DNA of 64,000 nucleotides from Astrocystis sublimbata (taxonomy: Eukaryota > Ascomycota > Sordariomycetes > Xylariales > Xylariaceae), in the NCBI GenBank assembly GCA_022453515.1, contig JAJNNY010000017.1, positions 1 to 64,000 on the forward strand, given 5' to 3'. Of the stretch, positions 20,612 through 64,000 are shown piece by piece. Position numbers and translations under genes: made by a program. The first letter of the stretch is position 1. Each line of letters starts with the position of its first letter. The notes under the pieces were generated by a model, which worked only from the letters and a program-made list of their open reading frames with translations, had not been told where the DNA came from and searched no databases.

Positions 20612-23125
20612 TCATTCATCGCTTCCACCCTCCTCTCCATCGCTCTCTTTATCTCCAGGCCCCATCCACCCAGTCGCCGCTTGCAGAACCGTCACAAACA
20701 CAATCAGCACAACCGCGGATTGGAAGAGCATTCTCAAAGCCGCACTATACCCCGCCACCGCCACCGTTCTTTCCTCATCGCTTAAGTTACCATGGTACAC
20801 CAACAATGGGCTCCCAATCAACTTTCTGATCAACTCCACCCTGTCTTTACTCAGATGGTCCTTCCCATCGAGAGCCAGCAGGCCCTTCTCCAGGCTACCT
20901 CGCAGCGCGCGTGCGAATATACCACCGCCGATGGCGGAGCCGAAGCTCCCCGCGAACCCGCGGAAGGTGTTTAGCAGACTGGTGGCCACATAGTGGGTTT
21001 CGGGGGTCGTCAGATGTAGCAGATGGGCGAGGGTGTAGTTCAACGCTCCGCCCGTGAACAGGCCGTTGAGGAAGACGATGATGACGTAGATGGGGAACGG
21101 GGTGTCGCGGGTGGAGCACACGGATAACACAGCGAGACTGAGCCCGGACAGAGCATAGCAGAGGATACTGGGACCCCAGAAACTGCCTGGGCGGCGGATG
21201 TGGAAGGCCTAGAGCTTTGGTCAGTTTACTATTTGGCGTGTCGGGGCAAGTATGCCGAGCTGTGGCCACGAGGGAGTGGGTGAGATTAGACTAACACCAA
21301 CTAGAAGACCCCCAAGGCCAAATCCAAAGTTCGTCGGTATGAGGATGCTCCCACTTGCAGCGGGGTTGAAGCCGAATACGGCGAGTGCTGTCATCGGGGT
21401 GTAGAACAGGACGGTCCATCGAGCGGCCACTTGAGTAAGCAAGGTAAGTTTTGTGTCCTTGTCTGATATTGATGGTAGATCAACTTACTATAACCAAGCT
21501 GAGAAAAGCACGACAGTAGAGCCCCGCGGTTTTGCAGAACGGAGAGGGGAATAATGGGATCAGCCGCAATGTATTTTTCGATCAGCACGAATATAACGAG
21601 TGATCCTAGAGAAGACGCGAGCGGGATGGGCTGGATCTTCCCCGAGAGTCCGAAGAGGAAGAGTACGACGGTAGTTGACTGTATATATGTAAGTTTAGAC
21701 ATGCCGATTAAAAATGAAAAAAAAATTGGATAGTGAATAGGCATGTAGTTTGCAGGGTAGGGCCTGCGTACCAGAAAAAAAGCGCCAGGGTAGTCAATAC
21801 GTTTTAGCTTCGCCCCCAAAGACATGTCCTGGTCTTTCTTCTGACTTGGTGATGTCATGGTATGTGGTATACTGAAGAAGATGAGACAACCAGCAATGAG
21901 AGTTGCCGGGGCTTGAGCCCAGAAAAGGGGTCTCTATTTGATGAATTAGTGTGCAAGTTCGGAAGATAGGGCCATGAGGAGCGCTATTTACCCATCCAAC
22001 AGTTTCAATCAAGCCGCCAAAAACCACCGCACCCAGGGAAACGCCTGTCGTCTTTAGCCCGCTGGAGTCAGTAACTGCCATTTACAGTGACGAGGTTGCT
22101 CTTGAAACGGGGGTTTGCAGGTATCTCGTAAGCATATATACCTGTTAGGGTAATTTATGCCTCGGAGACTTGCAAGAGGGGGGGATAAGTGACTTCAAGG
22201 AACACATACGAAGCCAGCGTTCCTGTGTGAGTGAAGTTAGCGATGGTGGATCTTTAAAACCCGAGGATTGTTGGTCGACGCCACGATAGCCGGTGTTTGG
22301 CATTCCAGCGTGCTCAAAGATTTCAACGGTCGCCTGAGTATATAATAGTAAAAGAGTTTCTGCACTCACGTCAATCCTATAAACAACCCCCTATTTCTCT
22401 TCGTCGTGAGCTCCAGTATTAGGATAAAAGCAAGCACCAGAGTCCCACCGCCGCCCAGCCCGGTGATGACACGGCCAAGTATGAAAACGGCGAAAGAGCG
22501 AGCTTGGGAGGTGACGAGGCATCCAATGGAGAACAAGACCGAGGAGACGAGCACCATGCTGCGCGGGGAGAAGATGGTGGCCAGCTTTCCTGTCAGCGGC
22601 GCCATGGAAGACAGTGCGACGAGAAACGAGGTGGTGAACCACATGGCGTTCTCGTAGGCGTCTAGATCGGCTGCGATGGTGGACTGCGCCATCGTTATGC
22701 CGCTCATATTCATGGCTGGCGTTGATGAACGGGTCAGCGTGTGGTCGTTGGTCCCTTGAGTCTGGGGGCCATTTCACGATGTCGCTGAGCAAAGACAGCC
22801 TTCGCGTTCGTTGACTTGACTTCGTATTTTCCCATTCCCAATTTGACGGATGAGACTAGGTGATGGGCATCATACCTTGAAAGAAAATGAGAATATAGAC
22901 GCTCAAGATGATTGCAATCCCTCGTTTTTTCGTGACCGTCTGATTCGCGGTATCCAAGTCCTCTCCATCTTCGGTATCGGTGAGCTCCGTCGGTGATCTT
23001 GAGCTCGGAGGGCTCGCGCTATTGCGCTCGGATCGCAGCAGCGGCGAGTCCTCGGTGGCCGTGGTCGAGGTTGTATCGTCCCTTAACAACGCGGCGTCTT
23101 CGCGCCATTGCGAGTTTCTTGCCAT
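20612..23125 (-). CDS. DHA2-type MFS transporter, vacuolar basic amino acid (Vba/Fnx1)-like
   Basis: The eight exons are 23125-22876, 22715-22370, 22222-22210, 22051-21992, 21933-21772, 21678-21489, 21429-21296 and 21208-20612, giving 583 residues. A cytosolic acidic Ser-rich N terminus (MARNSQWREDAALLRDDTTS) precedes a 14-span major facilitator core. Conserved pieces are NMSGITMAQSTIAADLDAYE, MAPLTGKLATIFSPRSMVLV, FILGRVITGLGGGGTLVL, GVSLGAVVFGGLIETVGWR and MAARWTVLFYTP. The family exports drugs or loads basic amino acids into the vacuole, and this member resembles the Vba/Fnx1 side by eye. Exon 3 is only 13 bases (GAACGCTGGCTTC), needed to restore GLTNAGFTTGVSLGAVVFG. The intron after it (22052-22209) is homologous to an intron in the GH43 gene at the right edge. 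Confidence 0.9.
22052..22209 (-). mobile_element. Introner-like element (intron 3 of the DHA2 transporter)
   Basis: This 158-base GT-AG intron (GTATG donor, CTAAAG acceptor, TACTGAC branch site) aligns along its entire length with the 157-base intron at 63779-63935. Shared plus-strand blocks include GCTGGAGTCAGTAA, TTGCAGGT, ACCTGTTAGGG and GAGACTTGC. It is in phase 0 and separates residues F and T of a conserved helix. The sequence is not coding, and the host genes are unrelated. Confidence 0.75.
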
Positions 23126-42689: not shown

Positions 42690-42770
42690 GGCAACGTGGC
42701 TGAGTGGTTAAAGCGTATGACTAGAAATCATATCCCTTCGGGGTCACAGGTTCGAGTCCTGTCGTTGTCG
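42690..42770 (+). tRNA. tRNA-Ser (anticodon AGA)
   Basis: The acceptor stem GGCAACG pairs with CGTTGTC (one G-T pair) with discriminator G. The D arm contains GGCTGAGTGGTTAAAGC. The anticodon arm TATGA-CTAGAAA-TCATA carries anticodon AGA. A long class II variable arm (TCCCTTCGGGGT region) is present, and the T arm is ACAGG-TTCGAGT-CCTGT. The gene has no intron and no encoded CCA. The long variable arm and anticodon agree on serine. The gene stands alone between two protein genes. Confidence 0.96.
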
Positions 42771-62891: not shown

Positions 62892-64000
62892 TTACACTGC
62901 CGCTACCCTTTCGGTAGCTGATATGTACTGCGCCTCTCCCATATAACTCCAGCGACCAAAATATGCATTCCCGCCCCCGGGACATTTGTGTCCCAAGCCA
63001 GCTCCATTGCAAGTAGCGTAAGCGCCTAAAAGACTACCAACAAATGAGCCATTGCCACCACTCACAAGTCCAGCGTAAGCTGTACCGATGATTAACTTCT
63101 GTTCAGGCCGAGCCGCAGGCATAGCTGCCAAGCTGTAGTGTGTTGTGTTCAAGGTCTGGATCTGAAGCTCAATGCTTTCATAAGTCCAATCTAACGGGAC
63201 AGGCACTGTTGTTTGCGGGGGCGGAATTCCTGTTCCTTCGGCGCGAAATCGGAAGACTAGGCGAGAGCTCCCGGTCGCCTCGTGCGTATTCGAGGGATCA
63301 GATGAGGGGAGGAGAACCACGCCTAGATCGATGTGATTTGTCTGCGTGAGGAAGACAGTGATACCAGCCTCCTGACCGACGGACTGAGGATCGAAAAACA
63401 GTTCGACGCTGAATGTGAACAGGGTATGCGTCTGCCGTCGCCCTATGAAAGAAAGTCCATCTTGACCTGTCAGTTCTGGCGTCGACTGCGAATAAGGTGT
63501 ACCCGTAAGATTGTTTCTGCTTGGAACGATCTTTAGCCCCCTCTCCGTGGTCTCGAACACACCCTCGCGAGGGACGCGCCAAAACACCAAATTGCGAGGA
63601 AGTCTTGTTCCTTTCCTGAAGTCATAGACGTCGTCGTCGGGATTGAACGGTCCATCTCCAGGAAGATCCCGATCAGGCACCGGCAATTGCCAACCAGTCA
63701 TATTGCCTCTAACGGGCTGCAGGACAGGCCACTCGCCCTCGTCCCACGTCACGGGAAATAGCACGGTCTCACGGCCCACTGAAACAGCTGGAGTCAGTAA
63801 TTGCCTTTCACAGTAAAAGAATTGCTCATGAAACAGTGGGTTGCAGGTGTCTCGGCAGTAAAGAGACCTGTTAGGGCAATACATGCGCCCGAGACTTGCC
63901 AGAAGGGGGATTAAATGACTCCAGAAGTTGCATACTGGGATACACCTCATACTGGGGCCCGGAGCGCGTCGCTAGGCACATCCCCCACCAGTTCCCCTCA
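62892..64000 (-). CDS. GH43 family glycoside hydrolase (partial, 5' end beyond right edge)
   Basis: Two exons are visible, 63936 to beyond 64000 and 63778-62892; together they encode the C-terminal about 317 residues. The first exon gives GNWWGMCLATRSGPQYEVYP, joined to MGRETVLFPVTWDEGEWPVL and QPVRGNMTGWQLPVP. This is the last blade region of the five-bladed beta-propeller of fungal beta-xylosidase/arabinofuranosidase-type GH43 enzymes. The rest is the beta-sandwich (concanavalin-like) C-terminal domain (RNLVFWRVPREGVFETTERG, LSFIGRRQTHTLFTFSVELF, GQEAGITVFLTQTNHIDLGV). The catalytic acids lie outside the window, so the substrate (xylan or arabinan side chains) is inference. The 157-base intron belongs to the introner-like pair. 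N-glycosylation sequons (NMT, NLT, NTT, NGS) fit a secreted enzyme. Confidence 0.88.
63779..63935 (-). mobile_element. Introner-like element (intron of the GH43 gene)
   Basis: This 157-base GT-AG intron (GTATG donor, TTTCAG acceptor) is homologous to the DHA2 intron at 22052-22209. It carries a perfect nine-base inverted repeat near its ends (CTGGAGTCA at 63788-63796 and TGACTCCAG at 63916-63924) and an inner seven-base one (GTCTCGG at 63849-63855 and CCGAGAC at 63889-63895). The removed RNA could therefore fold into nested hairpins. It is in phase 1 and splits the Met of the MGRE motif. Confidence 0.75.

What the first reader, a model, noticed from the sequence alone, without database searches (positions are those of the whole stretch)
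22052..22209. Homologous introns in two unrelated genes: an introner-like element family
The intron at 22052-22209 (DHA2 transporter, 158 bases) and the one at 63779-63935 (GH43 gene, 157 bases) align end to end. By eye about two thirds of bases agree, in blocks such as GCTGGAGTCAGTAA, CAGT, TTGCTC, TGAAAC, TTGCAGGT, TCTCG, ACCTGTTAGGG and GAGACTTGC. Both run in the sense direction, start GTATG and use a TACTGAC branch site at the same place. The host proteins are unrelated and the intron phases differ (0 and 1), so common gene ancestry cannot explain the match. Introner-like elements, introns that multiply as introns, are known in some fungi. A family in this lineage could be new.
Basis: partly seen in the sequence, partly recalled or inferred. 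Interest (0 to 1): 0.92.

Follow-up and report, generated by a model that had tools for sequence, protein, structure and literature searches.

The report
Self-copying introns in a Xylariaceae fungus
A 157-base intron has copied itself into well over a hundred places, mostly in unrelated genes, of one fungus, in reading direction and without scars, and the main lineages of copies sit next to their own characteristic exon letters, which gives a handle on how new introns are born.

Summary
The two introns are 77% identical over 137 bases (E 4e-25). The same genome (42.6 Mb; GH43 host nearest to Xylariaceae proteins) holds at least 176 related places; reversed-pattern controls gave none. Of 77 copies read closely, 59 join open reading frames in sense (antisense 27); Pfam domains cross the junction in 16 of 20 spliced hosts. 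The 15 neighbouring pairs within 2 kb all share a strand. No target-site duplication was found. Two copies with unlike flanks are identical. So this is an introner-like family, recently active. It is neither a stwintron nor a TSD-making DNA introner. Two features differ from descriptions I read: young S2 copies pair 16 of 17 near-terminal bases (ascomycete introners were reported without TIRs), and junction letters are lineage-specific (S2: next exon base T in 36 of 38; Xylariales elements were reported without exon bias). A second, unrelated family has 24 places. RNA-mediated insertion is the best reading; the enzyme is unknown. Splicing was not tested with RNA, gain not with related genomes.

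The parts
22052..22209 (-). Introner copy 1 (lineage S1), 158 nt, phase 0 in an MFS_1 transporter gene
22204..22209 (-). 5' splice site GTATGT of copy 1
22190..22198 (-). 5' arm of near-terminal inverted repeat, TTGAAGTCA (family consensus CTGGAGTCA)
22062..22070 (-). 3' arm of near-terminal inverted repeat, TGACTCCAG, overlapping the branch-site motif
22067..22073 (-). branch-site-like TACTGAC of copy 1
   Evidence: meaning of the motif recalled
22156..22173 (-). 5' arm of central hairpin of copy 1
22117..22136 (-). 3' arm of central hairpin of copy 1
22210..22222 (-). 13-nt exon left between an upstream 147-nt intron (22223-22369) and copy 1
   Evidence: read by eye, checked
63779..63935 (-). 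Introner copy 2 (lineage S2), 157 nt, phase 1 in a GH43 gene
63916..63931 (-). 5' arm of near-terminal inverted repeat of copy 2, GCAACTTCTGGAGTCA
63781..63796 (-). 3' arm of near-terminal inverted repeat of copy 2, TGACTCCAGCTGTTTC
63793..63799 (-). branch-site-like TACTGAC of copy 2

Best explanation
This is an introner-like element family: a short spliceosomal intron that multiplies as an intron. Shown: many related copies in unrelated genes, ends at GT and AG, sense orientation where it can be judged, seamless insertion in the tested hosts, no target-site duplication, recent activity, lineages with their own exon junction letters. Inferred: the spliced-out intron RNA is the mobile form. 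A near-terminal stem (best in young S2 copies) holds its two ends together and may protect it; the RNA is put into a transcribed gene, by reverse splicing or an equivalent ligation, and copied into DNA. After insertion the copy is simply spliced, so its stem is free to decay.
For: Copies: 40 of 40 scored candidates match, 101 candidates in all; 95, 140 and 158 pattern hits, controls 0; 176 distinct places merged from the listed rows of those calls plus 17 rows. Splicing opens the frame: at least 30 codons on both sides in 59 of 77 and at least 50 in 42 of 77, against 27 and 13 antisense, 25 and 9 with the intron kept. Codon score favours sense in 68 of 77, and in 28 of 28 with a score over 10. 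Pfam matches span the junction in 16 of 20 hosts, in the MFS_1 host and the full GH43 host. Neighbour pairs within 2 kb: 15 (1.45 expected), all same strand. No TSD: longest shared repeat 4.26 bases, shuffled 4.28. L010 and L011: identical over 157 bases, unlike flanks. Copies with a close relative fold better (Spearman -0.49, p 3e-5, n 67); this holds inside S2 (-0.51, p 0.001, n 38) but not inside S1 (-0.05, n 16) or S3 (-0.34, p 0.36, n 9). L010 z -7.0.
Against: No RNA-seq: splicing is inferred. No DNA of related species: gain is inferred from intron-less paralogues only. 8 of 77 copies lack clear coding sequence on either side and 9 of 77 score at least as well antisense; these could be untranslated-region, intergenic or decayed copies. 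Within lineages the stem shows no covariation (pairing equals expectation). The window copies fold only slightly better than shuffles (z -1.9, -1.5). Generic reverse splicing does not predict lineage-specific junction letters. The stem would also fit a terminal inverted repeat of a DNA transposon.
Confidence: 0.8

Rival explanations
1. DNA transposition: the family is a miniature inverted-repeat transposon that happens to carry splice sites, as in algal introners.
For: Inverted repeat near both ends, 16 pairs and one mismatch in L010. S3 (AG before) and S4 (GT after) junctions could hide a fixed 2-base duplication.
Against: No target-site duplication overall. Orientation: 28 of 28 well-scored copies sense, though 9 of 77 poorly scored or near-tied ones lean antisense; 15 of 15 close pairs same strand. 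In S1 and S2 both splice sites lie inside the element, so none is taken from a duplication.
Confidence: 0.12
2. Intron RNA is ligated into double-strand breaks as a filler and copied into DNA during repair (the proposal in print for Xylariales stwintrons), rather than reverse spliced.
For: Seamless, TSD-free, near-terminal stem as in the stwintrons. It is itself an RNA-mediated route and so overlaps with the best explanation.
Against: Random breaks predict no exon bias; here S2 has T next in 36 of 38 and S4 GT in 4 of 4. Breaks outside genes should receive copies in both orientations.
Confidence: 0.2
3. Template switching with microhomology: a stretch holding the intron and one or two flanking exon letters of a source gene is copied into a site that shares those letters, so junction letters mirror each lineage's source locus.
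For: In S2 the preference fades outwards: +1 T 36, +2 G 25, -1 A 20, -2 C 17, each of 38. Lineages defined by ends agree with a tree of the interiors (7 changes, shuffled mean 26.4).
Against: Does not by itself explain sense orientation. No source locus was identified.
Confidence: 0.2
4. Shared ancestry of the host genes, or introns conserved because they hold a functional RNA.
For: Predicted structure in young copies.
Against: Hosts belong to unrelated families; flanks unrelated; no covariation and weak folds in the window copies; Rfam at gathering scores finds only a tRNA in the window.
Confidence: 0.02

Closest known systems
Introner-like elements of Capnodiales (Fulvia, Dothistroma, Zymoseptoria)
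   Same: Near-identical spliceosomal introns in unrelated genes, several families per genome, two copies in one gene, recent activity (PMC4457414, parts 1-3 of 4 of the text read).
   Different: Other class of fungi. The AG/GY insertion preference reported for them (as cited in PMC8469720) is not the rule in S1, S2 or S4; junction letters differ by lineage here.
[quoted passage not shown]
   Same: Same order of fungi; seamless, no TSD, working only on the coding strand, inverted repeat near the ends, internal-deletion derivatives (PMC8469720: abstract, section 15, section 17 part 1 of 2; PMC12403724: abstract, sections 14-16, passages).
   Different: Not nested introns; repeat sequence unrelated (published 10-mer pair: 0 exact matches here); 3' arm overlaps the branch site instead of lying beyond it; exon bias present, reported absent there. 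Here the one deleted copy found has not multiplied.
Introners surveyed across eukaryotes by Gozashti et al. 2022
   Same: Definition met: sequence-similar introns in many genes (PMC9860276: section 8 and passages).
   Different: Ascomycete families are described there as without TIRs or TSDs; this one has a near-terminal inverted repeat and no TSD. Its supplementary species list was not read.
DNA-transposon introners of Micromonas and Aureococcus (Huff et al. 2016; not read, recalled and as described in PMC12403724 and PMC9860276)
   Same: Inverted repeats.
   Different: No TSD, no co-opted splice site in S1 and S2, no clear antisense copies.

Membership tests
Introner-like elements (fungal) | Similar introns in many unrelated genes | tested here: met
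   At least 176 places; hosts of unrelated Pfam families
Introner-like elements (fungal) | Element ends coincide with GT and AG splice sites | tested here: met
   A GT and an AG within 8 bases of the element ends in 77 of 80 copies; 67 of the 77 align with GT and AG at the ends, the other 10 are odd or truncated
Introner-like elements (fungal) | Excised from mRNA | not testable with these tools
   No RNA data; frame restoration only
Introner-like elements (fungal) | Sense orientation inside genes | tested here: met
   8 of 77 unresolved
Introner-like elements (fungal) | New positions, absent from orthologues | tested here: inconclusive
   Intron-less paralogues only: cutinase (1 place) and MFS (48 of 65 other matches are stop-free across the site); no orthologous DNA
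Introner-like elements (fungal) | Stable predicted structure | tested here: met
   Met in a young copy, L010 z -7.0; weak in the older window copies, z -1.9 and -1.5
[D1,2] sister stwintrons | Internal intron between G1 and U2 of an external donor | tested here: not met
   The exon base before GT is not fixed as G and TATG does not regularly follow the AG
[D1,2] sister stwintrons | Published NTIRE-10 pair | tested here: not met
   0 exact matches to the pair at 140-170 spacing; diverged forms not sought
DNA-transposon introners | Target-site duplication | tested here: not met
   4.26 against 4.28 shuffled; a fixed 2-base duplication in S3 or S4 cannot be told from target preference
DNA-transposon introners | Inverted repeats at the ends | tested here: met

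The most novel reading that the evidence does not exclude
Insertion is sequence-specific and heritable with the element: lineages of introner, defined by their ends, select (or were copied together with) their own exon letters, (C)A|TG for S2, AG| for S3, |GT for S4, and more loosely |A or T for S1. New introns in this fungus would then arise neither by random breaks nor by generic reverse splicing, but by a route that reads the intron's ends together with the target, and lengthening of the near-terminal stem preceded the latest burst.
Probability: 0.35. Interest if true: 0.88.

Novelty: new variant of a known kind. Interest (0 to 1): 0.74.

Why it matters
How spliceosomal introns are gained is a long-standing question, and ascomycete introners are the group where the DNA-transposon answer is reported to fit worst (PMC9860276). 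A family with identical copies, a visible chain of lineages (S1 to S2 with intermediates) and junction letters that change with the lineage lets the insertion step be tested instead of only inferred.

Tried and rejected
Rejected: gene duplication (unrelated hosts); stwintron; TSD-making transposon; a multiplying short derivative (one match to a 32-base pattern of the 59-nt deleted copy L106). A longer autonomous parent was looked for only in three places with a perfect 3' end and no listed middle match: one divergent copy, one copy with an S3-like start and S2 end, one deleted copy. Within-lineage covariation: none. Low-score opposite-strand hits were first taken as possible antisense copies and dropped: they are the inverted repeat matching itself. 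A literature search for the repeat letters gave 14 papers, none on introns by title. The count of structure pairs, fold_alignment, covariance models and protein folding were not used.

Rows dropped and weak points: of 97 rows, 17 below 44 bits were left out; of the 80 left, 3 had no usable splice sites. For A1, 67 of 77 were aligned. Lineage labels come from end motifs. In one search the rule for S4 itself asked for GT after the intron, so its 5 of 5, and the p-value for S4, are circular, whose rule uses the intron alone, gives 4 of 4. One search also left 7 unlabelled and some S2 in the S1 bin. In some searches and 88 matches with a mismatch elsewhere carry the expected last letter by design; only those with a perfect intron end inform. 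Pfam was run on 20 of the 36 hosts printed (36 of 77 copies), chosen by me.

Full report
Observation. The two introns lie on the minus strand at 22052-22209 and 63779-63935. They match over 137 bases without a gap at 76.6% identity, E 4e-25, and no other part of the window matches either below E 1. Spliced, the first sits in phase 0 in an MFS_1 match, 13 bases downstream of another, 147-base intron; the second sits in phase 1 in a GH43 match. Around the GH43 junction (residue 295) the 7 relatives aligned, of 120 listed, have neither gap nor insert, so that insertion was seamless.

Genome. The window belongs to a 42.6-Mb assembly of 189 contigs without a name. Its GH43 protein is nearest to Xylaria, Nemania and other Xylariaceae, best identity 79%, with Hypoxylaceae close behind, so the fungus is most likely a Xylariaceae species without an annotated close relative in that database. 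This rests on one protein.

Copy number. BLASTN with copy 1 scored 40 of 101 candidates, all matching; with a lineage S2 copy it scored 40 of 159. Three family patterns with up to 3 mismatches hit 95, 140 and 158 times, and their reversed controls 0 times. Merging the listed rows of these with 17 rows gives 176 distinct places, 92 plus and 84 minus. This is a lower bound because searches listed only part of their hits; on the other side it counts at least one duplicated segment twice (C11; L046 and L047).

Genes and orientation. An nhmmer scan of the held loci gave 97 rows; 80 scored 44 bits or more and 77 of these had usable splice sites. With the intron taken out, a frame is open at least 30 codons on both sides in 59 of 77, at least 50 in 42 of 77. 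Antisense: 27 and 13. With the intron kept: 25 and 9. A codon score, trained without the copy under test but on frames chosen as sense, favours sense in 68 of 77 and in 28 of 28 above 10; the 9 others are low or near-tied. Of the 18 copies below 30 codons, 10 have a frame of at least 60 codons on one side, the window copy among them; 8 stay unresolved. Pfam matches cross the junction in 16 of 20 hosts tried (L004 is below the curated cut-off and L018 crosses by one residue, so 14 strictly). Without any gene model, neighbouring copies within 2 kb number 15 (1.45 expected) and are all on the same strand; two of these pairs, 156 and 165 bases apart, may be tandem duplications. Within 5 kb it is 16 of 21. 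In L032 one copy follows another with no base between.

Insertion. No target-site duplication: the longest direct repeat at the two borders averages 4.26 bases, against 4.28 with shuffled 3' flanks. Phases are mixed, 20, 24 and 15 for 0, 1 and 2, in the 59 copies with open frames. In MFS paralogues of the same genome 48 of 65 matches run stop-free across the site, and one cutinase paralogue does so at its site: no intron there.

Lineages and junction letters. The 67 aligned copies fall by their ends into S1 (16), S2 (38), S3 (9) and S4 (4). A tree of the interiors alone agrees with these labels: 7 changes, shuffled mean 26.4, though 37 of 63 inner branches are open and S1 is scattered. The exon base after the intron is T in 36 of 38 S2 copies (TG in 24), A or T in 16 of 16 S1 copies, GT in 4 of 4 S4 copies; the two bases before it are AG in 8 of 9 S3 copies. 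Genome-wide, of the 20 matches with a perfect S2 end 19 are followed by T and 1 by A (the 26 other matches there carry T by design of the pattern). For the S1 end the 3 perfect matches are followed by A, T and G once each, so the S1 rule is loose or absent. 27 ordinary introns picked by rule from the same loci show no such bias (A 10, G 6, T 6, C 5). S3's AG may only be what its weak donor GTCAG needs for U1 pairing (recalled). S2's T has no such reading that I know.

Structure. In L010 (S2) TGCAACTC-CTGGAGTCA near the 5' end pairs with TGACTCCAG-C-GGTTGCA near the 3' end: 16 pairs and one C-C mismatch, starting three bases from the intron's 5' end and one from its 3' end. Across S2 the same positions pair in 78-97% of copies, the mismatch excepted. 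The 3' arm overlaps the branch-site motif. In S1 the outer part pairs less: positions 2-5 in 62-88%, 6 and 7 in 6%. Early branches of the S2 clade (L007, L009, L091) are intermediate in sequence. A second, central hairpin lies inside. Copies with a close relative fold better (Spearman -0.49, p 3e-5), which holds inside S2 (-0.51, p 0.001) but not inside S1 or S3. L010 has z -7.0, the two window copies -1.9 and -1.5. Inside a lineage, pairing is what column composition predicts: there is no covariation, so the stem is inherited and then decays. It may matter for moving, not for splicing; this is inference.

Age. L010 (6PGD match) and L011 are identical over 157 bases with unlike flanks; 12 young S2 copies average 92% identity, S1 77%. 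The family has been active recently.

Mechanism. Sense, genic, exact ends, seamless, no duplication: this favours an RNA copy of the spliced intron over DNA transposition. Whether it enters by reverse splicing, by ligation into breaks or by template switching is open. Random breaks or generic reverse splicing do not predict lineage-specific letters.

Comparison. Capnodiales introner-like elements behave alike (PMC4457414; parts 1-3 of 4 read). For Xylariales, Fekete and colleagues describe stwintrons and derived introns with inverted repeats and without exon bias (PMC8469720, PMC12403724; sections read). The present elements are not stwintrons, and the published repeat pair has 0 exact matches here. 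Gozashti et al. state that ascomycete introners have neither TIRs nor TSDs (PMC9860276; section 8 and passages). In searches for introner, stwintron and Xylaria with intron gain I saw no paper whose title or start of abstract describes this family; supplementary tables were not read, so it may be listed unseen.

Second family. An all-against-all comparison of the flanks showed another repeated intron, 114-120 bases, also GTATG to AG; 24 of 24 candidates in the genome match, the query included. Six lie within 2 kb of a family-A copy, all on the same strand, 0.4 expected; two of the six are those by which it was found; within 3 kb it is 7 of 8. Its two sequenced copies fold little better than shuffles (z -1.9, -0.6), and only these two were read.

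Noticed in passing
L034:832-945, L043:2601-2720; 24 places in the genome: A second, unrelated introner-like family (B), 114-120 nt; several copies lie near family-A copies and on the same strand.
   Followed up: partly
L106 (C179:226603): A 59-nt copy consisting of little more than the two inverted-repeat arms; the deletion lies between two CATTTA repeats. The host looks like an amino-acid permease by eye (no Pfam run). One match in the genome.
   Followed up: partly
L032 (C126, about 167200-167860): Three copies within about 650 bases, two of them head to tail with no base between; an S2 3' border followed by T is itself an S2-type target.
   Followed up: partly
window 22210-22222: 13-nt exon between a 147-nt intron and the introner.
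   Followed up: partly
C11, C16, C45: Pairs of matches in opposite orientation about 13-15 kb apart on one contig: inverted duplication or fold-back assembly.
   Followed up: no
L105 (C124:452420-452920): Copy with an S3-like start and an S2 end, perhaps a recombinant between lineages.
   Followed up: no
L006 (C167:85056): Copy with a lost donor (CTATATG) and only 15 open codons on either side: a decayed or non-genic insertion.
   Followed up: no
window 42690-42770: tRNA gene (Rfam).
   Followed up: no
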